Source of the DNA: an uncultured Lachnospiraceae bacterium
Lineage (GTDB): Bacteria; Bacillota; Clostridia; Lachnospirales; Lachnospiraceae
Direction: 5' to 3'
Assembly: GCA_947626395.1 (NCBI GenBank)
Contig: CANQRU010000023.1
Coordinates: 1-53,299, forward strand
Length of the DNA: 53,299 nt
The position numbers and the translations under genes are program-made. The first letter of the stretch is position 1. Each line of letters begins with the position of its first letter. The notes beneath the pieces are model-generated. The model worked only from the letters and a program-made list of their open reading frames with translations. It had not been told where the DNA came from and searched no databases. Shown here piece after piece: positions 11,533-30,589 of this stretch.

Positions 11533-11594
11533 ATGCGGCGTCACTGACTCTTTTCCGCATAGAAATACAGGCAGGGCGTCACTGGCGCCCTGCC
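11533..11594 (+). repeat. Dispersed hairpin repeat, two tandem units
   Basis: A degenerate unit (ATGCGGCGTCACTGACTC, CGCATAGAAATAC) is followed by a well-paired unit, GGCAGGGCG-TCACTGG-CGCCCTGCC (11570-11594). They lie between convergent genes, where the second stem could act as a transcription or RNA-stability boundary. Confidence 0.85.
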
Positions 11595-11602
11595 TTGCCG
11601 AC

Positions 11603-12967
11603 TCACTGTTCCAAAGGACTCTTAGGCCCCGAGGAAGGCTGGTTTTGAACGTCACCGGCCGACGGAGCTGCCGGGGCCTGAACGCTGCCGGGGACCTGGC
11701 CCGCCGCCGGAGTCTGAACACCGCCGGGCGCCTGAGCTGTTCCGGATGCCGCCGTCTGCGGCGTCCCACCCTGCCGGATGAGCCCGGTCGAATCCACCTC
11801 ATATCCATCCGGCGTTTTCGCGCCGGCATACATGGCTCCAAACGGTCTCTGGCCCGCGGTCGACATTTCCGTCTGCCCGGTCTGCGCGTTGCGGACCGGC
11901 TGCGGAACCGGCGTCACAGTATTAAAATAATACCAGCCGCCGGCGATCTGCTGCCATCCGGTGCACATGGCGCCGCTTGCCGCCAGATAATACCAGTAAC
12001 CGCCGTCGTAAAGCCAGCCGGTCCTCATCTGTCCGTTATCCGTTCCCAGATAATACCAGACCTTGTCGACCTCCTGCCAGCCCTTCTTCATATGGCCGTC
12101 CGCGGCCAGATAATACCAGATGCCGCCGCCCTGATACCAGCCGGTATTCATGATCCCGTCGCTGCCCATATGGTACCAGAGGCCGCCCTTAAACACCCAC
12201 GTATTCTTCGCGTAAGCTCCGGACGCCAGTTTGAATTTCCAGAATTCGCCGGTCTGTTCCCAGCTTCCCGGAGTCTCCACCGCGGCCGCAGAGGGGATCT
12301 GATAGACGCCGCCCGCGCCTGTGCCGCCGGGCCCGCCGGACGATCTGCGGCTTCCGCCTCCGCCGCCTCCCCATCCGCCAAAGCTCCCGCTTCCGCCGCC
12401 GGAAGATGCGCTTCCGCTGCCGGAGGAACCCTGGGATCCGGAGAGGGCGACCGTGCTGTTCTGAACGAAAGTAATATCGAACAGTTCGCCGTCCGCCACG
12501 ATCTCTCCGCCGTTTACCGACACGTTCAGCTTTCCTTCCGTCTCCGTCCTCAGCGTCCCCAGTTTCCGGATATTCGCCTGTTCCATGATCTTTCCGCTGC
12601 CGGCGATCACGATCGTCAGAAAGCCCCTGTCCGCGTCATATTCGTATTCCCTGATCAGGCTGTCGTCCCAGCCGCTGTCAAAGACAAATTCTACGGATTT
12701 CACATCCGAAAGATCCTCCGCGGTAAAAGCCGCGTTGACCTGGATCGCCGTAATATCGCCGAGCCCCAGCTGCCGCACCAGCTGAACCGACAGTTCCGCC
12801 TGCCCGTCTTTCGCCGCTTTCTTCCAGGAAGCCGCGCCGCTGATATGACCGGTCTCCGCACGGGCCGTCATACCGAAGAACAGGACGGTCAGAAAAAGCA
12901 TCACGCAGAACATCACCGCGGTCAGACGCGGAACCGGCCGGTATTTTCTCTTAAGCATCTCTCTCAT
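11603..12967 (-). CDS. Secreted wall-binding protein with cohesin-like N-terminal domain
   Basis: 454 residues. Signal peptide 1-37 (ends MTARA). Residues 45-172 form a beta-rich domain with a cohesin-like pattern (ITAIQVNAAFTA, VKSVEFVFDSG, FLTIVIAGS, IRKLGTLRTETEG, VADGELFDITF). A Gly/Ser-rich linker follows (175-220), then four to five choline-binding-type wall repeats (240-350; WYYLAADGHMKKGWQ and similar) and a Pro/Ala/Gly-rich tail. GGAGG lies nine bases before the ATG, which overlaps the stop of the upstream dockerin-bearing metalloprotease (ATGA). Wall attachment is well supported. The cohesin assignment is by motif pattern and by the partner gene, and needs a profile or structure search. 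Confidence 0.8.
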   Translation of the reverse strand: MREMLKRKYRPVPRLTAVMFCVMLFLTVLFFGMTARAETGHISGAASWKKAAKDGQAELSVQLVRQLGLGDITAIQVNAAFTAEDLSDVKSVEFVFDSGWDDSLIREYEYDADRGFLTIVIAGSGKIMEQANIRKLGTLRTETEGKLNVSVNGGEIVADGELFDITFVQNSTVALSGSQGSSGSGSASSGGGSGSFGGWGGGGGGSRRSSGGPGGTGAGGVYQIPSAAAVETPGSWEQTGEFWKFKLASGAYAKNTWVFKGGLWYHMGSDGIMNTGWYQGGGIWYYLAADGHMKKGWQEVDKVWYYLGTDNGQMRTGWLYDGGYWYYLAASGAMCTGWQQIAGGWYYFNTVTPVPQPVRNAQTGQTEMSTAGQRPFGAMYAGAKTPDGYEVDSTGLIRQGGTPQTAASGTAQAPGGVQTPAAGQVPGSVQAPAAPSAGDVQNQPSSGPKSPLEQ

Positions 12968-15900
12968 GACAGACCGCCTCCTTCATTCAGCATGATCTGC
13001 GGAAGTTCCGCCGGCACATCCACGAACAGCGTGGAACTGACGAGCCGCTCTCCCTCATTGGTCAGCGCATTGTCCACCCGATACAGTTCGGCGCGCACCC
13101 TGGAAGCATTTACCGTACCCGCGTAAGCCGGCTCAATATAGTAGACCCAGGTTCCTGAACTGACTTCTCCCAGAAGCCCGTCCTTCGGATCCGGCGCGAA
13201 AATGACCTGCACGGCGCGGACATTTCCCTGCGCGTCCGTACCTCCCACCAGCTGTCCGTTCTCATCCCACAGAAGCACCGCGTTAAACGCCGGATTGCCT
13301 TTATACTGCCCGGTGAAAATGATGGATCCGGCCGGGATATGGACGCCGTTCGCTCCGTTAAAGTCCGCTTTCAGGATACCGATGCTTCCGGCGGGCGCCA
13401 GATCGATGTTGTCGCCCGTCTGTCCCATCAGCGACAGTTCGGCAACCGCGACGGCCGAATGTCCCTGGCCTTTCGCCCTGATCCGTACATAGGACGCGTC
13501 GTATGTATAGAGATTCTTCTCATCGTGGAACCAGACCGTATGACTGCCTGCTGCATCCGGCTGGAACCGTTTTTCTGTCGTGACCACCGTCTTCCAGTCC
13601 TGCCCGGTCTCGCTCACGCTGATCTCAAAGTCGGTGATCGCCGGCCCGGAACCCGCCCGGTACTTAAGTCCCGTGACCGTCTCCGGCTGGTTCAGATGGA
13701 TAATGATCTCCGGATCGGAACCATCCGCGGTACGGCCGGTGAATGCGGTCGCATCGTCGCCGTCGATCATCGCCTCGATACCGGGCTGCTTCGTCGTGTC
13801 CGGATGCTCTTCATTGGGCTGCTCCAGATCGTCGTTGACCAGATTCGTGCTGACCGTCCACAGCGTATTGTCCAGACGTCCGTCATGGCTGACCTTCACG
13901 GAACCGATCTCCGTCCTCGCCGTCGGATTCAGGCACCGGTCATAACCTACAACCTCATAAGTAAATGTATGATTATTGATCGTCCCAATCACGTCTGTAA
14001 ATATCGCATTTCCGCCTGCAAACGCTTCCGCGTAACCTACCGGACGGCGCTCGATGCCGTCCTTCACGCGCTCATAGCGGTAGATCTCGTACATCCAGAT
14101 CTCACTGTCCGAGCTCAGATTCAGCGTCACCTGACTGCTGCCTTCCGTATAGTCGATATTTCCGCTGACGGCCGCGCCGGCCGCACGATCCCATCCGTAT
14201 CCGTTCTCAAGCTGATACGCGCGGATCTCATCATTGGCAAACCAGATTCCCCGCGTTTCCTTCTCGAACTGGCTGGCATAGGCCACGGTCCCCGCGTCCG
14301 GCTCCAGGCCCCACCGGGTGAAGAATTCCAGGATATTCTTCTCCGCGGCGGCCACCGCAAGACGCATCAGCTTATTGTCCGTATCCGCCTGGGACAGCGA
14401 CAGCTTATTGCCTTCCGCGCCCGGCGCAGCGTCGGGATGGCGCGCATAGGAATCCGCTCTCGCGAAGAACAGATTCGCCAGCTGCTCCGCATTGTCGTCA
14501 TAGGTCTTATAGTTATAACCTCCCAGATCATAAGCCAGATGCAGCTGCCAGTACATCGCCAGCTGGACGAAGACGTTGGACGCCTTCCCCTTTGTCCCGG
14601 ATGTGACCTTTTTAAATACGTCGCCGTACTGAAAACGGACGGAGTCGTTGGTGTCCTTCGCCTGGGCCAGCACCGAGAAATAGTTGTTGGTGACTTCCGC
14701 CACCGCGTAAGCGCCTTCATTGATCTCATGGCCGATCTCATGGGCGATGCCCCAGCCGAAGTACTGTCCGGTTCCCGCGTATCTTCCGTTTCCGTCAGTC
14801 TGCACAGGCACGCCGCCCATCATTCCCTTAAGCTCCGGCCACTCGATACCGATATGCTTTCCGCCCGCGTACATGAACGCCCCGGCGAACATCCTCTGGT
14901 AGCGGATGTTGATCCGGCTCACCGGCATCTTATTGTAAGAAGGCGCCTTCTCATCCTCGCTCAATCCCTTATGCTGATAGAACAGGACCATCATCTCATC
15001 GAAAGCCCGCATGGACTGTTCCAGCTTCCGCGCCATATCGTCCGCGCTGCCCCTTCCCGGTCCTTCCAGAACCTGCGTGACCGCGGTAGAGATCATGCCG
15101 TAGCGCGTCAGGATATCCGTGGCCTGATAGATACAGTTCTCCGGCTGCCATGTATATTTCTGATGGTCTTTGGCATGATCAGTCCGGGCCGCCTCTTCCT
15201 GTGCGGTTACCTCAAGCAGGTATTCTCTGGCCAGTTCCACCCTTTTGGCGGTATCCGTCTCATCCGACAGATCCAGAACGGCCGCCTTATGGCCTCCGCT
15301 GACGCGCACTCCGTACTGCTCCGCTCCGGAAGCGCCGGTATACTCCACATACAGCTGGCCGCCGCGCTCCAGATTCATATCGTCAAGCGCCGTGACCGTG
15401 ATCTCATTGGGGCCTCCCTTTAAGTAACCAAGGGATTTGAATACCGCATTGCTGCTGCCGTGATACTGGGAAATGATCAGCTCAAGCCGCGTAGTGTCTC
15501 CGTTTCTTACCATCGGTCCGCCTACATAGACCGTTACCGTTTCCCCGGCCAGGGCAGTCACTCCCAGCGGCTGATAGGTATTCAGGCCGCCGCGGAAGGT
15601 GATATGGCTGTCCGAGCGCGCCGTATCCTTCGTATCGACCGCAAGGATCTGCGCCTGCGCGCCTTCTTTTAAGATCTTCTCCGCATTGTCCAGTTCGGTC
15701 TCCAGCTCCGCCTTGCGGGGATGATACTCGCCGCTGACGCTGTCCTTAATCTTGAGTTTCGCGCGCAGGGCATTGATATCCGCGACAGTCACGTCCTCAC
15801 GCAGTACCACATGGTAGGAATCTGTATACAGATCCATGATCTCATGCTCAATGGGATCATAATAATAGAATTTCATCTCGGCGACGCTGATCCGTCTGGC

Positions 15901-18360
15901 GTGGCCGTAGGAATTTCCCATAAGAAGCTGTACCTTCGAAGCCTTAAACGGCTGCTCCGTCTGGAACGTATAGTAGATCTTGTTATTGCTGCTGACCTTG
16001 CGGCGCATGGTGGTCTTAAGCGCCGTCTTCGTTCCGTCCGCGGACCAGTACTGCAGCGTCGCGCCGGTCATCTCATAGGTCTGCGCTTCATCCGGAATAA
16101 CGAGGACCGTATCCATCTCATACTCCTGGTCAAACGTCACGACCGGCGCTTTTCCATCATCCGGATAGGTATAACCGGCGTCCCAGTCTTCCCGCACCCA
16201 GGATGTGTCGTACCGTCCGTCCACGATATCAAACTGACGGTCTCCCTCTCCGCCGTTGGCGACAGAGAGAATATGGGCGGTCACGGCTTCTCCGGTCCGC
16301 ACGGTATTGATCAGTTTATAATTCGGCGTCTCCGGCGGATTCAGACTGATCGTCGAGGCGGTATAATGCAGGGATTCCGGGCCCTCGCCGATCGGATTCA
16401 CGCCGGTCAGATAGAACTCATATTCCGTCTCATCCTGCAGGTTCGTCAGCTCGTATTTCGTTCCCGCAATGGCCTTCACCGGCTGGTAAGGCGTGTTGTC
16501 GCTGGACGCGATCCGGTAGAACAGGTTATAGGTTTCCGTATCCTTCATATCCTTCCAGCTGATGATAAGACGCCGGTAACCGGACTGGATCACCAGATTC
16601 TCCGGCGCAGGGGGCAGTCCCATCGCCCTGGGCGCCGCGCTCACCTTCGCGGCCTGGCTCCGCCAGGAACCGTTAACGGAACGGACTTCCACTTCGTAAA
16701 GGTTACCGTTGACAAGGTCGGAACCGTTTAAGGACGTCACTTCCAGACCGGCGGTCTCAACTTTATGGGTATCCGAAGACGTCCGGCCCTTGCTGTCTGT
16801 TCCCGAGACCACGACCTCATAGCCGGTCACATTGGGCATCTTCTTCCATGAGAGCGTGAAACACTCGCTTCCATTTTCTACAACTACCCGCTCGGGAACC
16901 GACATGGGAGCCTTCGGAATCCGGTCAGCCATATCCCCATAGAATTCAACGTCCGAGATCTCGGCCAGGCTGCCCCCGCTCATGGTCTTCGTAACCTTGA
17001 TCGTTATCTTCTTTACGGCAACCTGTCCCTTAAGATCGATCACAATGGGCATGCCCTGCAGCATCCCGTCCTGAATGGCGATCGTATTAAGCGCGAAGAA
17101 TCCGGCGCGGATCATGCTGACCTGCTGAAGCGCCTGCCCGTCGCGGACCGTAAACACTCTCTGCGTTCCTTCTTCCGTTTCCACGACGACCTGTCCGTCG
17201 CGGATACTTCCATCGGAACCTTCTACCGGGTCGATCACGAATCCTCCCATCGTTTTCGGCTCCGCAAATTCCGCGGAGACCTGCACCGGAGATGTGTCGC
17301 TGATCGCCGCCCCGGCGCTCTTTAAAGCCACCGCGCTGCCTTCCCCGGTCATCGCGCCGGTCAGGGAACCCGTTACCTCCGTCCCGGTCTCCGCTTTCTC
17401 CGTCACTTCCCCGGCCCGGATCACAATATTCTCCACCGGATGCGCCTTGCGGCTCTCAAGACCGGTTCCGTAATATCCGGCAAACACCGACACATCGAGC
17501 AGATTTACCTGACCGTCGCCGTTCAGATCGGCTCTGTCGCAGTAAACGCTGTGCGTCTCTTCTTTCCCGGAAATAATATCCATCAGGATATCTTTATCTG
17601 CTTCATCCAGAATACCGTCGGCATTCACATCGCCCATGATAAGGACGCCGAATTTCTGCGCCGCGGCCTGATCCGTATATCCGTGGAGTTCCGGCTTATC
17701 GTTCATCAAATGGATCGTCGTCAGATTCGTGCCGATCTCAATATTCTTCTGTTCATAAGGGAGATAAGAACTGTCCGTGTCGGACATGGGGGTCAGTTTC
17801 AGATCATAGACGCCCGACGGGATCTCTTCAAGAACCGCCGACGCGTTCACATAGACGCCGTCTTCCGTTCCCGGAAGCTCTATCGTGGAACTGAGCTGAC
17901 TGATCTGTCCTTCCTCGGCCGAAACCGTGCCGGAAGGATAAAGCTCCGCCTGCCAGACAGACGGGCGGCTGGCCACGACGCCCTGAATATCGATCTTCAG
18001 ACTTCCTGTTTTCTCAAGTATGATCCGGCGCATGCCGAAAAGCGACTGCGCCTCCGACGCGGTCGCGGCTGCGATCTCCTCATCCGGATCCGTGCTTTCG
18101 TCCGCGTCTTTGTCCGGCTCGGCTACCGATTCTGCTGACGGCTCGCCTTCCGGTCCCGCGCCCGGTTCGGTCTCTTCTGCCACGGTTGCCGGATCCGTAT
18201 CATCCTCCACGGTCTCCGCCGCCGCATCCGGCATCTTATCTTCATCTCCCGACGCCGGAGTTTCTATTATCGGCAGAGTATACCGAACCCTGGCCGCGGA
18301 AGTAACCGGCATTTCAAGGGCCATCAGTACCGCTAAAAATAACGCTGCTTTCTGTCTCAT
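12964..18360 (-). CDS. Secreted M60-type (mucinase-like) zinc metalloprotease with dockerin
   Basis: 1798 residues. Signal peptide 1-22, then an acidic low-complexity stretch. A type I dockerin-like pair of calcium loops lies at about 240-305 (GDVNADGILDEADKDIL and ADLNGDGQVNLLDVSVF). Next come a carbohydrate-binding-like region, two fibronectin type III domains (about 480-670), an F5/8 (discoidin)-like region (about 680-840) and the peptidase. The site HEIGH (1207-1211), with Glu at 1222 in AVAEVTNN, fits HExxH-x(8-28)-E of M60/enhancin gluzincins, many of which cleave mucin-type glycoproteins. A second F5/8-like domain lies near 1500-1630. It has its own promoter and is coupled to the downstream wall-anchored protein. 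Likely role: surface degradation of host mucins (inference). Confidence 0.9.
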   Translation of the reverse strand: MRQKAALFLAVLMALEMPVTSAARVRYTLPIIETPASGDEDKMPDAAAETVEDDTDPATVAEETEPGAGPEGEPSAESVAEPDKDADESTDPDEEIAAATASEAQSLFGMRRIILEKTGSLKIDIQGVVASRPSVWQAELYPSGTVSAEEGQISQLSSTIELPGTEDGVYVNASAVLEEIPSGVYDLKLTPMSDTDSSYLPYEQKNIEIGTNLTTIHLMNDKPELHGYTDQAAAQKFGVLIMGDVNADGILDEADKDILMDIISGKEETHSVYCDRADLNGDGQVNLLDVSVFAGYYGTGLESRKAHPVENIVIRAGEVTEKAETGTEVTGSLTGAMTGEGSAVALKSAGAAISDTSPVQVSAEFAEPKTMGGFVIDPVEGSDGSIRDGQVVVETEEGTQRVFTVRDGQALQQVSMIRAGFFALNTIAIQDGMLQGMPIVIDLKGQVAVKKITIKVTKTMSGGSLAEISDVEFYGDMADRIPKAPMSVPERVVVENGSECFTLSWKKMPNVTGYEVVVSGTDSKGRTSSDTHKVETAGLEVTSLNGSDLVNGNLYEVEVRSVNGSWRSQAAKVSAAPRAMGLPPAPENLVIQSGYRRLIISWKDMKDTETYNLFYRIASSDNTPYQPVKAIAGTKYELTNLQDETEYEFYLTGVNPIGEGPESLHYTASTISLNPPETPNYKLINTVRTGEAVTAHILSVANGGEGDRQFDIVDGRYDTSWVREDWDAGYTYPDDGKAPVVTFDQEYEMDTVLVIPDEAQTYEMTGATLQYWSADGTKTALKTTMRRKVSSNNKIYYTFQTEQPFKASKVQLLMGNSYGHARRISVAEMKFYYYDPIEHEIMDLYTDSYHVVLREDVTVADINALRAKLKIKDSVSGEYHPRKAELETELDNAEKILKEGAQAQILAVDTKDTARSDSHITFRGGLNTYQPLGVTALAGETVTVYVGGPMVRNGDTTRLELIISQYHGSSNAVFKSLGYLKGGPNEITVTALDDMNLERGGQLYVEYTGASGAEQYGVRVSGGHKAAVLDLSDETDTAKRVELAREYLLEVTAQEEAARTDHAKDHQKYTWQPENCIYQATDILTRYGMISTAVTQVLEGPGRGSADDMARKLEQSMRAFDEMMVLFYQHKGLSEDEKAPSYNKMPVSRINIRYQRMFAGAFMYAGGKHIGIEWPELKGMMGGVPVQTDGNGRYAGTGQYFGWGIAHEIGHEINEGAYAVAEVTNNYFSVLAQAKDTNDSVRFQYGDVFKKVTSGTKGKASNVFVQLAMYWQLHLAYDLGGYNYKTYDDNAEQLANLFFARADSYARHPDAAPGAEGNKLSLSQADTDNKLMRLAVAAAEKNILEFFTRWGLEPDAGTVAYASQFEKETRGIWFANDEIRAYQLENGYGWDRAAGAAVSGNIDYTEGSSQVTLNLSSDSEIWMYEIYRYERVKDGIERRPVGYAEAFAGGNAIFTDVIGTINNHTFTYEVVGYDRCLNPTARTEIGSVKVSHDGRLDNTLWTVSTNLVNDDLEQPNEEHPDTTKQPGIEAMIDGDDATAFTGRTADGSDPEIIIHLNQPETVTGLKYRAGSGPAITDFEISVSETGQDWKTVVTTEKRFQPDAAGSHTVWFHDEKNLYTYDASYVRIRAKGQGHSAVAVAELSLMGQTGDNIDLAPAGSIGILKADFNGANGVHIPAGSIIFTGQYKGNPAFNAVLLWDENGQLVGGTDAQGNVRAVQVIFAPDPKDGLLGEVSSGTWVYYIEPAYAGTVNASRVRAELYRVDNALTNEGERLVSSTLFVDVPAELPQIMLNEGGGLS

Positions 18361-18399: not shown

Positions 18400-18428
18400 A
18401 TTATAGCACTTCTTTGATGGCCTAGCAA
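18400..18428 (-). promoter_or_regulatory. Promoter of the metalloprotease / wall-protein operon
   Basis: Minus strand -35 TTGCTA (18423-18428), 17-base spacer, -10 TATAAT (18400-18405). Leader of about 35 bases. Confidence 0.7.
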
Positions 18429-18572: not shown

Positions 18573-19766
18573 TCATGCCTGTGTATCCGGTCCCTTTTGA
18601 CGGCTCATCTCCAGCAGCTTCCGGCGCAGCTCTCCCTCGATCCTGCCCAGCTCCTGCTCGGCCTCCTGGCGCTTGACGCGGCCTTCCTCCTGGATCTTCA
18701 TCACGTCGTCCAGAGTAGAGATCAGCGTCTGGTTCGTCGTCTTCAGCGTCTCGATATCCACGATGCCGCGCTCCGACTCCTTCGCGGTCTCCACCGTCGC
18801 CAGCTTCAGCATCTCCGCATTTTTCTTCAGCAGCTCGTTGGTCGTGTCAGATACCTGGCGCTGTGCTTTGGCGGCCTCGGTAGAATGACTTAATCCCACC
18901 GCGATCACCATCTGGGTCTTCCACAACGGGATCGTATTCACCAGAGTAGACTGGATCTTCTCCGACATCACCGTATCATTGTTCTGAACCAGCCGGATCT
19001 GGGGCGCCATCTGCAGGGACACCATGCGGGTCAGATCCAGATCATGCAGCTTCTTCTCGAACCGGTCGCAGAGGTTGCTCAGATCGCTGGCCGCCTGGGT
19101 ATCCTCCGGCAGGCCGCTCTGATTCGCCTTCTCGAAAGCCGCGGGGAGTTCTGTGCTTCTTACCTCTTCCAGCTTCTTCCTGCCGGCCATGATGTACATG
19201 GACAGTTCCTTCAGATAGGACAGATTCAGATCGTACATCCGGTCCATGACCGCCACATCCTTGAGAAGCTGTATCTGGTGATTCTCCAGCATCTTGCAGA
19301 CCTGGTTCACATGGCTCTCCGCCTTTTCATATCGGGCCTTTATCGCTGACAGCTTATTGGTGTTCTTCCTGAAAATGCCGAAGATCCCCTTGTCTTCCTC
19401 GTCGTCGATGGTCTTAAGCTCCCCTACCAGTTCCGTCAGCATCTGACCGACCTCGCCCAGATCCTTGGTCCGGATATTCTCCAGCGCCGTATCGGAGAAA
19501 TCGGCGATCTTCTTCTGCGCACCGGCTCCGTACTGCAGGATCATGTTGGAATTGGTCAGATCGATCTTCCCGGCGAATTCATCCACCATTTTCTGTTCCT
19601 CCGGGGATAATTTCACCTGAACCGCTTCCGGCCTGGGCGCGGCAGCAGGGTCTGCCACGGTCTGAAGCTCCTGCTTTTCTTCCGGAACCGTCTCCGCCCC
19701 GAACGGCTCCAGCGTAAGTTCAAGTTCGGGCGCTTCCGTGATCATATCATCCATGTTCTGTGCCAT
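18573..19766 (-). CDS. telA: TelA-family toxic anion resistance protein
   Basis: 397 residues, typical TelA length. After an acidic Pro/Glu-rich N-terminus (1-50) the TelA domain spans about 50-380. It is almost wholly helical, with IQLLKDVAVMDRMYDLNLSY and the conserved PLWKTQMVIAVGL segment, and ends in a coiled coil (EQELGRIEGELRRKLLEMS). The family is associated with resistance to tellurite and to cell-envelope stress; its mechanism is unclear. It lies 56 bases downstream of xpaC, as is usual for this pair (compare yceG/yceH of Bacillus). Confidence 0.92.
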   Translation of the reverse strand: MAQNMDDMITEAPELELTLEPFGAETVPEEKQELQTVADPAAAPRPEAVQVKLSPEEQKMVDEFAGKIDLTNSNMILQYGAGAQKKIADFSDTALENIRTKDLGEVGQMLTELVGELKTIDDEEDKGIFGIFRKNTNKLSAIKARYEKAESHVNQVCKMLENHQIQLLKDVAVMDRMYDLNLSYLKELSMYIMAGRKKLEEVRSTELPAAFEKANQSGLPEDTQAASDLSNLCDRFEKKLHDLDLTRMVSLQMAPQIRLVQNNDTVMSEKIQSTLVNTIPLWKTQMVIAVGLSHSTEAAKAQRQVSDTTNELLKKNAEMLKLATVETAKESERGIVDIETLKTTNQTLISTLDDVMKIQEEGRVKRQEAEQELGRIEGELRRKLLEMSRQKGPDTQA

Positions 19767-19822
19767 CTTTCAAAACCCTCCCATGATTATTCTCTTTTAT
19801 GAAATCTCCGCCTCGGACAGTC

Positions 19823-21346
19823 TTAATCGGTTTTCTGACCGCCGCCGTCGAAATCCCCTTCTGTCAGCCCTTCCCGCTTCAGAATGGTCTGAAGCACCGA
19901 AGCGTCGGTCATCACGTCGAACGCCGTGTCTTCATACATATCGTCCAGAAGCTTCTCGAAGGCCCCGTTGATCGTGTCCATGGTCTCCTCGATCTCCTTC
20001 ATGGCGTTATTGATATTGTCTCCCGGAAACTCCACGGAAGCGAACTCGCTGTAAGCCGTCACCAGCTTCACCGTAGTCGGAAGATAATACTCCATGAACC
20101 GCTCCAGCTCATCCAGCTGATCCGGATACTTCCGCAAAGTCGCAAACAGCCTCTCCAGCACACGGTCCAAACGGATCAGCTTATCCGTCATCCTGCCGGC
20201 CGGCAGGGACTGACGCATCCGATCCAGCGCCTCCATCTGCTCCTCGCCGCGGGCGATGGCCGCTGTCACCGCGGCATCCCCGGAATCAGAACCTCCGGTC
20301 CCACCGGTCCCGGCGCCCTGCCGCGCCGTCTCCGGCTGCGCGGCTGCAGTATCCCGCGCGCCGCCGTCTCCCTGATTCCTGCCGGCCTTCTGCGCTTTCT
20401 CCGCTTCGCGGGCCATTTCCTCTTCCTGCTGCTTCCGGCTGCGCTCCTGCTCCTGCCGGATCCTCAAAGCTTCCTGGGACATCTCATACTGACGGTAGGT
20501 CTCCGCGTCCATCATCAGATAGGTTCCCTTATCGTCCATCCTGGCGTCCGGCAGCATCCCAAGCCTCAGGATCTTCTGCAGATCCTTCTTCGCGAAGCTT
20601 TCGCTGCGTCCGGCCGCGCGTCCCAGACGGCCCACTTCACAGTAAGGTCTTCCGACCCGCCGGATCTCATCCAGATACTGCTTAAGTCTGTGGACACGGC
20701 CATATCTGCTGACTCCGCCCCACAGCATCAGTCCAAAGCCGGCGGTTATAAGACCAAAAAGCAGGACCATGATCCACCCGGCCGCTCCGTCGATCGCGAT
20801 CAGAGACATCGTGATCATCAGAAATGTCAGCATCCCGAACGCAGAGGTACCCAGGGCGCCGGCCATGCTCATCAGAACTCCCGATATCCGCCCTCTCCAC
20901 CGAACGCGGTAATCCGCCGTCTGCGGCGTCTGCTTCTGTCCGCCGTAAGTATAGGGCTCGGAACTGTAAGTACTCTGCCAGCCCGAATTTCCATAACTAT
21001 ATCTGCCGTCGTCCCCCGGCTGGCGGGTTCCGTGTCTCCAGTTCTCATCTCTGCCGGAAACGCCTGCCGTTTCTCCGCCTGAAGAAGCTGCTCCGCTGTT
21101 CCCGGCGCTGTCCGCTTCCTCCGGCACCCAATTGGCGGCCTGGCTGTCCACCGGCTGCCCCGACTGCTTTGCCGCCTGGCTGCGGTATCTCTCAAACTGC
21201 TGTCTGGCCTCATCAAGGGCAGAATCCACCGTACCGCTGATGGAACGGTTCAGCTGATCAAAATCGCTGAAATCCAGCGCCTGGCTCAGCGCCCTCCGGA
21301 TCTGTTCCGCGATATCGTTCTTTCCCCTTTCACCCTGTCCGCCCAT
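19823..21346 (-). CDS. XpaC-family (5-bromo-4-chloroindolyl phosphate hydrolysis) membrane protein
   Basis: 507 residues from the ATG at 21346, which follows GGGAGG by about five bases; an ATG 39 bases further upstream has no site. A Ser/Gly/Gln-rich N-terminus (1-140) precedes two membrane helices (about 150-205, including VLMSMAGALGTSAFGMLTF), then the XpaC domain with KKDLQKILRLGMLPDARMDD, a coiled-coil Glu/Gln/Arg region and a conserved helical C-terminus. Usually found with TelA, as here. Enzyme activity is not established for the family. It is longer than the Bacillus homologue because of the N-terminal extension and coiled coil. Confidence 0.85.
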   Translation of the reverse strand: MGGQGERGKNDIAEQIRRALSQALDFSDFDQLNRSISGTVDSALDEARQQFERYRSQAAKQSGQPVDSQAANWVPEEADSAGNSGAASSGGETAGVSGRDENWRHGTRQPGDDGRYSYGNSGWQSTYSSEPYTYGGQKQTPQTADYRVRWRGRISGVLMSMAGALGTSAFGMLTFLMITMSLIAIDGAAGWIMVLLFGLITAGFGLMLWGGVSRYGRVHRLKQYLDEIRRVGRPYCEVGRLGRAAGRSESFAKKDLQKILRLGMLPDARMDDKGTYLMMDAETYRQYEMSQEALRIRQEQERSRKQQEEEMAREAEKAQKAGRNQGDGGARDTAAAQPETARQGAGTGGTGGSDSGDAAVTAAIARGEEQMEALDRMRQSLPAGRMTDKLIRLDRVLERLFATLRKYPDQLDELERFMEYYLPTTVKLVTAYSEFASVEFPGDNINNAMKEIEETMDTINGAFEKLLDDMYEDTAFDVMTDASVLQTILKREGLTEGDFDGGGQKTD

Positions 21347-21494
21347 GGCCGCCTCCCATTCCGCGCCGCTCTGCCGCCGCGGCATATTCTGTCAATATCA
21401 TTTTTATTTTATCCAACACTGTCCTGCAAAACCTGTTTCCTTTTCATCCGGCAGCGATCCCCGGAACCTGACCGCCTTCTGCGTCACGTCCCGC

Positions 21495-28284: not shown

Positions 28285-30453
28285 TTACTGGATCCAGACG
28301 CCGTTGGCATCTACATTATAACCGTCCGGCGTAGTTCCGTTCACGAACAGGGAGCCCTGCGGGCCGCCGCTCTCGGGACGGAAGTAATACCATTTGCCGT
28401 CGATCTCATGCCATCCGGTGTACATATAACCCTGCGTACCGTCGGATACCGGATGCAGATAGTAGCGGTTGTTCTCCCATGTGACCCATCCGGTCACCAT
28501 GTAGCCTTCCGCATCGAAGTAATACCAGTCTGTCTTGCCGTTCCAGACCAGCTGCGCCCAGCCGTTCGCCGGCCATGTGCCGTCCGGATTCTGATACCAC
28601 CAGCGCACGCCGTCCGCAGCACGCACCCACTTGCCAGTCGGGGTAGTGCTCGCAACCGAACGACTGTAACTTCCTCCGCTGGAAGATATTTTAGTTGCAG
28701 TCAGAACAAACTCACTAAAGGATTTTGTCTTAAAATCCACCCTTAAAGCTCCGCCTCTGGACGGCGTCCATACCACATCGGCCAGAGTTGTCTTCTTGCC
28801 GCCATGAATGTGCTCAACCGTATACTTATATTGAGACCTATCATAGGCATCGGCAAAAGCTTCCGGAGTTTTAACAGTCAGGCTGACCGGAGTCACCAGA
28901 TCTCCCTTTATTTCTTCCCCATTAACAAGAAGCTTCACATCCAGCACAACCTTAGTAGCCGTCGCCGGCGTCGCTTCTTCTACTTCCAGCATCAACGATG
29001 TATCCGTAGATTTATAACCGGAAGCCAAAACCAAACCGGTCGCATATACTACCAGGTCAGCATCAGCAGATGTCGCCGTTACCAAATTGTCGATGTCAAG
29101 TCCATAGGCCTTGGCAAGCGCTTCATCCATTTGATTAATCTCATCCGCTGTCAGAGTGGAAGCCTGTTTCTTCACTACATCGACCAGCGCATCCGCGACT
29201 TTTGTCCTAAGTTCCAAAGAATACGTATCGTCAAGTTCATTTAGCTGCTCCAACGTATTGAGTAAATCTTCCGCTTTCGTGGCGTCAGACGGAGTCGCAA
29301 ATTCAGGAGCTTTGGTGTCATCCACTATTCCATTCTTAAATGTATAGGTAAGCGCGCCAACAGCCTTCTCACCGTTGACAGTCGCATCAAAGTAACCATC
29401 CTTGTTCACATAGGCTTTACTGCTGTCCCTGGGAACAACCGCATCTCTGACAATCTCACCGTTCGCATCAACATAGCGCTCACCGCCTTCATCATTGACC
29501 CATGTCTTTGCAGACATGACACCTTCATCATCAAAATGATAACGGCCTCCCCCTACACTCTTCCATCCGCTGCGAGCAGCCCTTCCATCGTTACGGAAGA
29601 AATAGAATTTTCCATCTTTTTCAACCCAACCATTGGAGAATCTGACGCCGGCTTCATCCAAATAATAAAACTCTCCGTCAAATTCAATCACTTTATCCAC
29701 AACCATACGGCCGTCAGGTCCCAAATAGTACCAGTAGGTGTTGCCATTAGCCGCACTGACACCCTCACGCCAGTCGTCAATAACCATATCGCCATTTTCG
29801 TAATAATAGAAATCTTTTCCTTCCTGCACCCAGCCTTCCTTTAACTTCGGCTCAGAAGGATTGGTCAATGCACCGCTGTCACTGAATGTATAAGTTACTC
29901 CGTCGATCGTCATCTGATCACCGGCAAACATCTTGCCGTCGTATTCGAAATAATACCACTCTTCATCAATCTCGTGCCAACCGACAGCCTTTTTTCCTGT
30001 TTTCCCAAAGTAATAAAATTCACCCTCACCGGACTTCACCCAGCCAAGGACATAAATCTCACTGTCTTTCGCCGGTTCCTTCGGATCCTCCAGCGCTCCG
30101 CTACCGTCAAATTTGTATGACTTTCCTTTAATGGTAATTGTTTCGCCGGAAAGCATCCTTCCATCGCCGCCGACATAATACCAAGAGGAACCGTCTACTC
30201 CCGGAATCCAGGTGTTCTTAACTGTCTTGCCATCTTCGCCGGCAAAATAGAATGCACCGTCCTTATCTATCCAGGCATTCTTGGCCTCTGCGTTATTATC
30301 GTTGGCATTGACCCATACATCCTTCTCGTTGAGCTGCCAGTCAGGTTTCTTAGGCTCCTCGGCCACACTCGTCAACGCTGTCATCGCCATCATAACGAAT
30401 GACAGCAGCAGCGCAATATACCGTTTTGCGCTCTTACTTCTTAAACCCTTCAT
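28285..30453 (-). CDS. Secreted protein with N- and C-terminal cell-wall-binding repeats
   Basis: 722 residues from the ATG at 30453, seven bases after AGGAGG. Signal peptide about 1-30 (YIALLLSFVMMAMTALTSVAE). About eleven choline-binding-type repeats fill residues 35-330 (SSWYYVGGDGRMLSG, EEWYYFEYDGKMFAG and others). A unique helical and beta middle region (about 350-590) has no recognised domain. Three or four more repeats end the protein (TDWYYFDAEGYMVTGW, GKWYYFRPESGG). Much of the gene is AT-richer than its neighbours, suggesting transfer. It is divergent from an XRE regulator. Probable surface protein; target unknown. Confidence 0.85.
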   Translation of the reverse strand: MKGLRSKSAKRYIALLLSFVMMAMTALTSVAEEPKKPDWQLNEKDVWVNANDNNAEAKNAWIDKDGAFYFAGEDGKTVKNTWIPGVDGSSWYYVGGDGRMLSGETITIKGKSYKFDGSGALEDPKEPAKDSEIYVLGWVKSGEGEFYYFGKTGKKAVGWHEIDEEWYYFEYDGKMFAGDQMTIDGVTYTFSDSGALTNPSEPKLKEGWVQEGKDFYYYENGDMVIDDWREGVSAANGNTYWYYLGPDGRMVVDKVIEFDGEFYYLDEAGVRFSNGWVEKDGKFYFFRNDGRAARSGWKSVGGGRYHFDDEGVMSAKTWVNDEGGERYVDANGEIVRDAVVPRDSSKAYVNKDGYFDATVNGEKAVGALTYTFKNGIVDDTKAPEFATPSDATKAEDLLNTLEQLNELDDTYSLELRTKVADALVDVVKKQASTLTADEINQMDEALAKAYGLDIDNLVTATSADADLVVYATGLVLASGYKSTDTSLMLEVEEATPATATKVVLDVKLLVNGEEIKGDLVTPVSLTVKTPEAFADAYDRSQYKYTVEHIHGGKKTTLADVVWTPSRGGALRVDFKTKSFSEFVLTATKISSSGGSYSRSVASTTPTGKWVRAADGVRWWYQNPDGTWPANGWAQLVWNGKTDWYYFDAEGYMVTGWVTWENNRYYLHPVSDGTQGYMYTGWHEIDGKWYYFRPESGGPQGSLFVNGTTPDGYNVDANGVWIQ

Positions 30454-30505
30454 TCTTTTTCCTCCTAACCCTGCATTCATTATGCAGAAATCTAAAAACG
30501 ATACT

Positions 30506-30534
30506 ATTTTAGAACAATATGGTCTAAATGTCAA
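30506..30534 (-). promoter_or_regulatory. Promoter of the wall-binding protein gene, with possible operator
   Basis: Minus strand -35 TTGACA (30529-30534), 17-base spacer, -10 TAAAAT (30506-30511). An imperfect palindrome in the spacer (TTAGA and TCTAA half-sites, 30509-30527) could bind the divergent XRE regulator. Confidence 0.75.
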
Positions 30535-30589
30535 CGATATCCATGATTCTATTTTATAATTCATTTTATAATCGTCTGCAGGTGATCAC

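What the first reader, a model, noticed from the sequence alone, without database searches (positions are those of the whole stretch)
11603..18360. Two-gene surface system: dockerin-bearing M60 metalloprotease plus cohesin-like wall anchor
Seen: the 1798-residue protease has a two-loop dockerin (GDVNADGILDEADKDIL and ADLNGDGQVNLLDVSVF) and the M60 site HEIGH...E. The next gene, coupled by an ATGA overlap, encodes a signal peptide, a cohesin-like beta domain (residues 45-172), a Gly/Ser linker and wall-binding repeats. Known: cohesin-dockerin pairs build cellulosomes and attach some Clostridium perfringens glycosidases; M60 enzymes attack mucin-type glycoproteins. Inference: this is a minimal anchoring device that displays one mucinase at the wall by a dedicated cohesin encoded in the same operon, without a scaffoldin. 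I know of no described cell-wall-repeat protein serving as a single-cohesin receptor for a mucinase.
Basis: partly seen in the sequence, partly recalled or inferred. Interest (0 to 1): 0.87.

Follow-up and report, generated by a model that had tools for sequence, protein, structure and literature searches.

The report
Mucin protease docked to swappable anchors
A gut bacterium makes a large mucin-cutting-type protease carrying a docking plug, and the gene right behind it makes a small surface protein that very probably holds the matching socket; the same gene pair recurs in many related bacteria with the plug and socket kept but with different kinds of surface anchor.

Summary
The two genes are as described: a 1798-aa M60 protease with an N-terminal two-loop dockerin, and, through an ATGA overlap, a 454-aa secreted protein with an unassigned beta-type domain and choline-binding repeats. 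A promoter-like site precedes the pair and a terminator-like hairpin follows it. Profile tests place it nearest to cohesins (above 60 of 60 block-shuffled controls), which is suggestive, not proof. The strong evidence is comparative. In 397 genomes of the family an X-module+dockerin profile finds 37 loci; in 35 of 36 readable ones the same domain family lies next door (32) or in the same protein (3). The pair also occurs in one genome of another family. The domain stays while the tail changes: choline-binding repeats, CWB2 repeats, transmembrane segment, fn3/Big-like repeats. Four M60 proteins without the dockerin have no such neighbour; one carries the fn3-like tail itself. Most likely this is a scaffold-free device tethering one protease to the envelope by a dedicated, divergent cohesin. 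Binding is untested. It is a new variant of cohesin-dockerin anchoring; single-cohesin anchors and mucin-degrading cohesin-dockerin complexes are already known.

The parts
18400..18428 (-). promoter-like site (TTGCTA-17-TATAAT, TG before the second hexamer) upstream of the protease gene
   Evidence: consensus match only, 10 of 12; 9 promoter-like sites found in the region against 3.2 expected
12964..18360 (-). M60 metalloprotease gene, 1798 aa: signal region, X-module, dockerin, two fn3, further beta domains, M60 catalytic domain, F5/8C domain, C-terminal region
17683..18045 (-). X-module, residues about 106-226, just before the dockerin
   Evidence: alignment A3; 16 of 28 members hit Pfam CarboxypepD_reg at E<=0.01, the window member does not; X-modules of type-II XDocs resemble a carboxypeptidase D domain (PMC5141474, passage)
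17485..17634 (-). dockerin, residues 243-292; Ca loops at residues 244-255 (17596-17631) and 278-289 (17494-17529)
   Evidence: second-loop Asp/Asn/Asp/Asp invariant in 28 of 28 aligned members
14308..15021 (-). Peptidase_M60 domain; HEIGH at residues 1207-1211 (14728-14742)
12964..12967 (-). ATGA stop/start overlap coupling the two genes
11603..12967 (-). small secreted anchor protein gene, 454 aa
12443..12856 (-). cohesin-like domain, residues 38-175
   Evidence: family in alignments A1 and A2; nearest to cohesins in profile tests; no Pfam or NCBIfam cohesin and no PDB cohesin match
12266..12442 (-). Gly/Ser-rich linker, residues about 176-234
   Evidence: sequence
11918..12265 (-). choline-binding (cell-wall-binding) repeats, residues about 235-350
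   Evidence: (Choline_bind_1, five stretches, E 4.7e-19)
11569..11595 (-). terminator-like hairpin (10 pairs, 8 G-C) just after the second gene
   Evidence: consensus match only; 9 found in the region against 5.1 expected

Best explanation
A two-gene, scaffold-free surface-display device. The protease is secreted with an N-terminal X-module+dockerin plug. The co-transcribed small protein is secreted, attaches to the cell envelope by its tail (here choline-binding repeats), and presents one divergent cohesin-type domain that grips the plug in a Ca-dependent way, so the O-glycopeptidase-type protease is held at the surface. Shown: gene order and overlap, dockerin, M60 site, co-occurrence of the two parts at nearly every readable locus, constancy of the receptor-type domain and exchange of the tail. 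Inferred: co-transcription, the X-module assignment, cohesin fold, the binding itself, envelope attachment by the tails, mucin-type substrate.
For: (1) Two separate genome-wide searches converge: the X+dockerin profile hits 36 of 397 family genomes (37 loci); the 9-row cohesin-like profile hits 29 of 397, in 25 of them at these same loci (26 loci, 3 of them fused); 9 further loci show the domain in the next gene with a wider profile (domain E 3e-22 to 4e-10). In total 35 of 36 readable loci. (2) The pair occurs outside the family: G689 (L171), M60 1988 aa with Dockerin_1 (E 8.3e-6), next gene with the domain and CWB2 repeats (E 1.5e-49). (3) Of 38 small proteins examined, 13 have choline-binding-type repeats, 1 CWB2, 14 a C-terminal-side transmembrane segment, 10 fn3/Big-like or similar tails without one; in all 38 a hydrophobic stretch lies near the N-terminus. 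(4) Control: 24 of 250 family genomes have a PF13402 M60 at E<=1e-5; 20 have X+dockerin (19, G179), of which 17 have the domain clearly beside or in the protein, G042 is cut, G242 has no significant and G179 only a weak neighbour hit; 4 have no X+dockerin and none of those 4 has the neighbour domain. One of the 4 (G140) carries in cis the fn3-like tail seen on six small proteins (phmmer E 1e-20 to 3e-12). (5) In 11 of 25 pair-bearing genomes the only Pfam dockerin at E<=0.01 is shown to lie in the M60 ORF; in 4 of these 11 no PF00963 cohesin is found even at E<=1, so the neighbour domain is the only visible candidate partner. (6) Cohesin identity: HHalign score 22.7 with 55 cohesins, above 60 of 60 block-shuffled cohesin alignments (max 21.1) and above 54 of 54 M60-protein windows, forward and reversed, against the same cohesins (max 20.5); the cohesin profile hits L110 at E 9e-5 within a set of 40. 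(7) The plug resembles surface-attachment XDocs: the A3 profile hits the XDoc chains of PDB 4wi0 and 4u3s over profile positions 50-168 (E 9.2e-8 and 5.3e-7).
Against: No Pfam or NCBIfam cohesin hit for any of 29 members and no PDB cohesin hit. HHalign probability is only 4-10% with default settings, 2-19% with others; in global mode the 40-row alignment gave an out-of-register match (probability 0.5%). In the first calibration, with 25 cohesins, 3 of 46 M60-protein windows scored as high or higher against the cohesin-like profile (19.8, 20.9, 23.5) than the cohesins did (19.7). In HMMER, reversed sequences also score above shuffled ones, and the best reversed one reaches 10.2 bits, about the window domain's own 10.5 (E 9e-4). 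Tree-distance correlation did not single out the dockerin: the X-module correlates best with the cohesin-like domain (r 0.80), but fn3, the 320-480 region and F5/8C do as well as or better than the dockerin (0.77, 0.72, 0.70; dockerin 0.70). In G242 the neighbour gives no significant hit, in G179 only a weak one (domain E 0.0019). No structure or complex prediction could be run.
Confidence: 0.72

Rival explanations
1. The pairing is real but is not cohesin-dockerin: the small protein's domain contacts another part of the protease (as a folding helper, activator or substrate-presenting subunit), and the dockerin does something else.
For: The domain is not recognised as a cohesin by any library searched; in three fusions it sits near the C-terminus of the protease, far from the N-terminal dockerin; X-module and fn3 distances track it at least as well as the dockerin does.
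Against: M60 proteins that lack the X+dockerin also lack the neighbour (4 of 4) although they keep the M60 domain; even the partner with a degenerate site (HVIGH, L097) keeps both dockerin and neighbour; the domain is nearest to cohesins in the shuffle test.
Confidence: 0.14
2. The dockerin's true partner is the other cohesin of the genome, a membrane-anchored PF00963 protein on another contig (G000:C69), and the operon neighbour is an unrelated surface protein.
For: That protein exists (593 aa; PF00963 E 6.5e-7; a transmembrane stretch is visible in its sequence) and the same-genus genome has one too.
Against: PF00963 matches of any kind occur in 60 of 120 family genomes (E<=0.1), far more than have the M60 pair, and are absent at E<=1 from 7 of 25 genomes that have the pair. 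In five genomes (G015, G340, G284, G283, G299) a PF00963 match lies within about 210 bases of its own separate dockerin match (the G299 cohesin is below cut-off). The neighbour gene is next to X+dockerin M60 genes at 32 loci and fused at 3.
Confidence: 0.07
3. The pair forms a complex as proposed but the tail is not a wall anchor: it binds glycans of the host or mucus, so the complex is released and acts as a two-part secreted enzyme.
For: Choline-binding-type repeats also occur in glucan-binding proteins (TIGR04035 stretch); 10 of 38 tails are fn3/Big-like or similar with no attachment role known to me; one non-dockerin M60 carries the same fn3-like tail in cis.
Against: 14 of 38 tails contain a transmembrane segment, usually near the end with basic residues after it, and one has CWB2 wall-binding repeats, which argues for the cell surface as the common theme.
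Confidence: 0.05

Closest known systems
Type-II XDoc-cohesin anchoring of cellulosomes (C. thermocellum ScaA/CipA XDoc with anchoring scaffoldins; A. cellulolyticus ScaA)
   Same: An X-module followed by a dockerin is the part that goes to the cell surface; the receptor is a cohesin on an envelope protein (PMC5141474, section 2 and passages). The X+dockerin profile matches such PDB chains (4wi0, 4u3s, 2b59).
   Different: There the XDoc is at the C-terminus of a multi-cohesin scaffoldin; here it sits near the N-terminus of a single enzyme, no multi-cohesin scaffoldin was found in the host, and the receptor domain is not recognised by the cohesin model.
Single-cohesin enzyme receptors of C. thermocellum (ScaD and ScaG, PMC5141474 legend passage; older names OlpA and OlpC recalled)
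   Same: One cohesin on a surface protein can bind one enzyme directly.
   Different: Those carry type-I cohesins, which the dockerins of many enzymes bind (recalled); here receptor and enzyme are a dedicated adjacent gene pair and the tail types differ.
Limousia mucinolysome, including cSca5 with an N-terminal cohesin and LPxTG (PMC12997984, Gut Microbes 2026)
   Same: Cohesin-dockerin attachment of mucin-degrading enzymes, including dockerin-bearing peptidases, to the envelope of a gut bacterium (partly predicted there by AlphaFold3).
   Different: A multi-scaffoldin, multi-enzyme system with 21 dockerin CAZymes and six dockerin peptidases in strain ET540; M60 is not named in its main text (0 occurrences). 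Here: one enzyme, one receptor, no scaffoldin found.
C. perfringens X82 cohesin / dockerin enzyme pairs (described in PMC12997984 section 21, from Adams 2008, not read)
   Same: Single cohesin and single dockerin modules joining host-glycan enzymes without a classical scaffoldin.
   Different: There the five cohesin proteins all have a glycosidase domain; here the partner has no recognised catalytic domain and looks like an envelope anchor.
M60-like (PF13402) O-glycopeptidases such as BT4244, ZmpB, AM0627 (names from memory and passages of PMC13003899)
   Same: Catalytic domain with HExGH, with F5/8C and fn3 accessory domains; the PDB sequence matches include M60 peptidases.
   Different: Nakjang 2012 (PMC3267712, Table 4 passage) lists a dockerin in 2 of 415 M60-like proteins and its main text does not mention cohesin (0 occurrences).

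Membership tests
Dockerin type I (PF00404) | score over the Pfam cut-off | tested here: met
   24.8 bits against 22.9 for the whole protein; 30.9 in the genome search
Dockerin type I (PF00404) | two 12-residue Ca loops with Asp/Asn at the coordinating positions | tested here: met
   DVNADGILDEAD and DLNGDGQVNLLD; loop 2 Asp/Asn/Asp/Asp invariant in 28 of 28 members, loop 1 more variable
Type-II-like XDoc (X-module + dockerin) | carboxypeptidase-D-like beta sandwich directly before the dockerin | tested here: inconclusive
   16 of 28 members hit CarboxypepD_reg and 14 PEGA at E<=0.01, the window member hits neither; A3 profile spans part of X and the Doc of PDB 4wi0/4u3s; no structure
Peptidase M60 (PF13402) | score over cut-off and HExGH site | tested here: met
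   39.2 bits against 25.8; HEIGH at 1207-1211
Peptidase M60 (PF13402) | O-glycopeptidase (mucinase) activity | not testable with these tools
   needs an enzyme assay
Cohesin (PF00963) | recognised by the cohesin sequence model | tested here: not met
   no hit for the window domain or any of 29 members; not among the 26 PF00963 matches in the 25 pair-bearing genomes at E<=1
Cohesin (PF00963) | homology by profile-profile comparison | tested here: inconclusive
   score 22.7, above 60 of 60 block shuffles and 54 of 54 windows, but probability only 10%; earlier set not above decoys; L110 E 9e-5
Cohesin (PF00963) | nine-stranded jelly-roll fold (recalled) | not testable with these tools
Cohesin (PF00963) | Ca-dependent binding to a dockerin | not testable with these tools
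   needs a binding experiment
Choline-binding wall-anchored proteins | PF01473/PF19127 repeats | tested here: met
   five Choline_bind_1 stretches, E 4.7e-19
Choline-binding wall-anchored proteins | binding to the cell wall | not testable with these tools
   needs fractionation; another choline-binding-repeat protein lies at 28285-30564
Cellulosome / mucinolysome | scaffoldin with several cohesins and several dockerin enzymes | tested here: not met
   one Pfam dockerin (E<=1) and one Pfam cohesin over cut-off found in the host genome; cohesins that Pfam misses would not be seen

The most novel reading that the evidence does not exclude
The domain is an unrecognised class of cohesin that pairs one-to-one with an XDoc carried directly by an M60 protease, and the pair is a modular plug-and-socket that lets bacteria exchange the envelope anchor (choline-binding, CWB2, membrane, fn3/Big) without touching the enzyme. 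In dockerin-rich genomes the socket has been fused to the enzyme and a second, different dockerin takes its place as the link to a larger complex.
Probability: 0.55. Interest if true: 0.76.

Novelty: new variant of a known kind. Interest (0 to 1): 0.66.

Why it matters
It would show cohesin-dockerin attachment used in its simplest form, one enzyme and one receptor, in many gut-type bacteria, several of them with no other Pfam dockerin, and would explain how a mucin-type protease is held at the surface. It would also define a cohesin type that current models miss: one genome with the pair (G255) has 28 dockerin matches and no PF00963 match at E<=1. The prediction is cheap to test with two purified domains.

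Tried and rejected
Direct database identification of the domain failed. First HHalign tests against 25 family cohesins were not above decoys; a larger cohesin set (55 sequences) improved the score, and block shuffles plus protein windows were then used as controls. The decoy windows (46, 54) overlap and come from one alignment, so they are not independent. Distance-matrix correlation was not discriminating and is not used as support for the interface. Of three non-dockerin M60 tails compared with 386 ORFs, only the G140 tail matched small-protein tails; the G100 and G110 tails matched nothing at E<=0.01 (one search's printout was cut, so one search repeated it).

Hits judged spurious or not pursued: own-genome G000:C9 (E 0.42); L008/L021 and L009/L022 (no M60 ORF of the kind); G176:C7 and G031 (no hit with the A1 profile at E<=1e-3 in L113 and L114), G225 and G373 (weak, not examined); four of five foreign hits (by eye); L013-L015, which match P0002 only at residues 222-396, in or beside the repeats. 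Left out before the distance test: L012, L107, L203 (truncated) and L208. Of 28 extracted family cohesins 25 were used: L046 was dropped because its stretch ran into a second domain, L045 and L053 by a length filter; L035, L038 and matches without loci were not extracted. The G158 gene is split over two contigs (L213 and L107); the two open frames overlap by 25 identical residues at the contig ends, and it is counted as one fused locus.

Literature: ten searches of the held open-access library; cohesin+dockerin+mucinase gave 0 papers; no title or start of abstract in the listings described a cohesin receptor for an M60 protease. Only listings were seen for most papers, and subscription papers were not searchable, so absence is for this library only. 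Passages were seen in PMC3267712, PMC12997984, PMC5141474 and PMC13003899, outlines of PMC12997984 and PMC5141474, section 21 of PMC12997984 and section 2 of PMC5141474; no paper was read whole. OlpA/OlpC names and the role of type-I cohesins are recalled.
Full report
OBSERVATION. The protease gene (12964-18360, minus) encodes 1798 aa; the next gene (11603-12967, minus) encodes 454 aa; stop and start overlap as ATGA. A promoter-like site lies at 18428-18400 and a 10-pair terminator-like hairpin at 11595-11569, so the two look like one transcription unit, though these are consensus matches only. Pfam recognises, in the protease, Dockerin_1 (243-292), two fn3 stretches, Peptidase_M60 (1114-1351) and F5/8C; and, in the small protein, choline-binding repeats. 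HEIGH is at 1207-1211. PDB sequence matches of the protease include M60 peptidases. The N-terminal domain of the small protein has no Pfam or NCBIfam match and only one chance-level PDB match, to an unrelated protein (E 0.27).

ONE DOCKERIN IN THE GENOME. In the host genome (G000, 3.46 Mb, 98.5% complete) the M60 dockerin is the only Pfam dockerin found at E<=1. One other Pfam cohesin over cut-off was found, in a 593-aa protein with a transmembrane stretch on contig C69. PF00963 matches of any kind occur in 60 of 120 family genomes at E<=0.1 (42 over cut-off), far more than have the M60 pair.

THE PAIR IS CONSERVED. A search with the window domain found 8 of 250 family genomes. Neighbourhoods of the six better hits, and of three close relatives in Lachnospiraceae MAGs (L010-L012, found with the whole small protein; the isolate name 'Lapin' suggests rabbit), contained a large M60 protein (truncated by the contig end in L012); the two weakest hits did not. 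A 9-row alignment (A1) found 29 of 397 family genomes. 25 of those 29 have the domain beside, or in, an M60-type protein of 1719-2099 aa (26 loci); the other four hits are weak (E 9e-4 to 0.009). One partner, L097, has a degenerate site (HVIGH) but keeps the dockerin.

A second, separate search with the X-module+dockerin alignment (A3, 28 rows) found 36 of 397 genomes, 37 loci, at E<=1e-12. Eleven of these genomes had no A1 hit at that locus (G176 had a weak one elsewhere). Their neighbourhoods were read with a wider, 30-row profile: in nine the next gene has the domain (domain E 3e-22 to 4e-10); in G042 the protease runs off the contig; in G242 the next gene has no significant hit. So 35 of 36 readable loci have both parts: 32 as neighbours and 3 fused (G098, G220, G158; the G158 gene is split over two contigs whose frames overlap by 25 residues). 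For 23 of the 32 the domain was found by position-blind search; for 9 only by looking next door. As a check, the 30-row profile hits 39 of 3174 ORFs of at least 80 aa in the loci read, at E<=1e-3, and all 39 are these domain-bearing ORFs (30 of the 39 are rows of the profile).

CONTROL. PF13402 finds an M60 in 24 of 250 family genomes at E<=1e-5. Nineteen are in the X+dockerin list (17 with the domain, G042 unreadable, G242 without a significant hit); G179 has a weaker X+dockerin (E 4.3e-13) with a weak neighbour hit (domain E 0.0019). The remaining four (G054, G100, G110, G140) have no convincing X+dockerin and no such neighbour. G140's M60 carries at its own C-terminus the fn3-like tail that six small proteins carry (phmmer E 1e-20 to 3e-12); the G100 and G110 tails matched none. 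The tail thus can occur in cis on the enzyme or in trans on the partner.

BEYOND THE FAMILY. Among 391 genomes sampled from the class, one convincing hit lies in another family (G689): an M60 protein of 1988 aa with Dockerin_1, then a 631-aa protein with the domain and CWB2 wall-binding repeats.

CONSTANT DOMAIN, CHANGING TAIL. All 38 small proteins examined have a hydrophobic stretch near the N-terminus. Thirteen have choline-binding-type repeats (three of them checked with Pfam, the others by pattern), one CWB2, fourteen a transmembrane segment, usually near the end and followed by basic residues (in L019 followed by a long basic tail), and ten fn3/Big-like or similar tails without one. In the three fusions the domain is followed by a second, C-terminal dockerin (by eye; Pfam E 1.7e-9 in L020). 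Those three genomes carry 25-39 Pfam dockerin matches, so the fused enzyme may be joined there to a larger complex; this is inference.

THE PLUG. The second Ca loop is invariant at its Asp/Asn/Asp/Asp positions in 28 of 28. Pfam Dockerin_1 is hit in 25 of 28 members, CarboxypepD_reg in 16 and PEGA in 14. X-modules of type-II XDocs resemble a carboxypeptidase D domain (PMC5141474, passage), and the A3 profile matches the XDoc chains of 4wi0 and 4u3s over the dockerin and part of the X-module. This argues for a surface-attachment type of plug placed directly on an enzyme; the assignment rests on sequence only, and the best-scoring PDB matches are ordinary enzyme-borne dockerins.

IS THE SOCKET A COHESIN? 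Against: none of 29 members hits a cohesin model and no PDB cohesin was hit; HHalign probabilities are 4-10% with default settings; with 25 cohesins 3 of 46 windows of the M60 proteins scored as high or higher against the domain profile than the cohesins did; a global alignment of the 40-row set was out of register. For: with 55 cohesins the score is 22.7, above 60 of 60 block-shuffled cohesin alignments (mean 13.2, max 21.1), above the reversed controls (16.3), and above 54 of 54 windows of the M60 proteins set against the same cohesins (max 20.5). In HMMER the cohesin profile gives L110 E 9e-5 and the window domain E 9e-4 within 40 sequences; 9 of 40 reach 7 bits against 1 of 40 reversed, but that reversed one reaches 10.2 bits, close to the window domain's 10.5. 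In the other direction 6 of 55 cohesins reach 7 bits against 2 of 55 reversed. I read this as moderate support for a divergent cohesin. G255, with 28 dockerin matches and no PF00963 match at E<=1, suggests that PF00963 misses cohesins in this family.

PARTNER BY ELIMINATION. In 25 pair-bearing genomes, 11 have a single Pfam dockerin at E<=0.01 shown to lie in the M60 ORF (a twelfth, G114, has one match whose place was not printed; G284's single match is elsewhere; G367 and G392 have none; the other ten have 2-39). Seven of 25 have no PF00963 match at E<=1; G013, G195, G269 and G338 are in both lists. There the neighbour domain is the only visible candidate.

WHAT DID NOT HELP. Distances between the cohesin-like domains track the X-module best (r 0.80) but also fn3 (0.77), the 320-480 region (0.72), F5/8C and the dockerin (0.70 each) and the M60 domain (0.65), so this shows joint inheritance, not an interface. 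No structure could be predicted.

PLACE AMONG KNOWN SYSTEMS. It works like cellulosome surface anchoring reduced to one enzyme and one receptor. It is not a cellulosome or mucinolysome by the test made: no multi-cohesin scaffoldin was found in the host. Single-cohesin surface receptors for enzymes (PMC5141474), cohesin-dockerin enzyme pairs in C. perfringens and a mucin-degrading cohesin-dockerin complex in Limousia (both in PMC12997984) are known; dockerins on M60 proteins were counted in 2012 (2 of 415, PMC3267712) without a partner. I found no description of this pair in the listings of ten searches of the held library. Hence: new variant of a known kind, with a receptor domain whose class membership is still open.

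Noticed in passing
G000:C69:2259-4037 (L055), minus strand: A second cohesin protein (593 aa, PF00963 E 6.5e-7, transmembrane stretch) next to an 877-aa secreted protein that looks SH3-like by eye; a similar protein is in the same-genus genome (L053) and in G119 (L048). Function unknown.
   Followed up: partly
G015:C78, G340:C15, G284:C35, G283:C30, G299:C3: Separate dockerin and cohesin matches lie within about 210 bases of each other, suggesting another dockerin/cohesin gene pair in this bacterial family.
   Followed up: no
G255 (whole genome): 28 Pfam dockerin matches but no PF00963 cohesin at E<=1, implying cohesins that the model misses.
   Followed up: no
L097:2916-8291 (+): M60-like paralogue with a degenerate site (HVIGH instead of HExGH) that keeps the X+dockerin and the cohesin-like neighbour; a second, intact locus (L105) is in the same genome.
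   Followed up: partly
L020, L101, L107: Natural fusions of the cohesin-like domain to the protease, each followed by a second C-terminal dockerin (Pfam-checked in L020 only); the three genomes have 25-39 Pfam dockerin matches.
   Followed up: partly
window 28285-30564 (-): A 759-aa protein with many choline-binding repeats; the host evidently uses this repeat elsewhere.
   Followed up: no
window 18573-21385 (-): TelA and Halogen_Hydrol (XpaC-type) genes just upstream of the pair; in the same-genus genome two ORFs of similar size, order and strand lie at that position (L016; not identified there).
   Followed up: no
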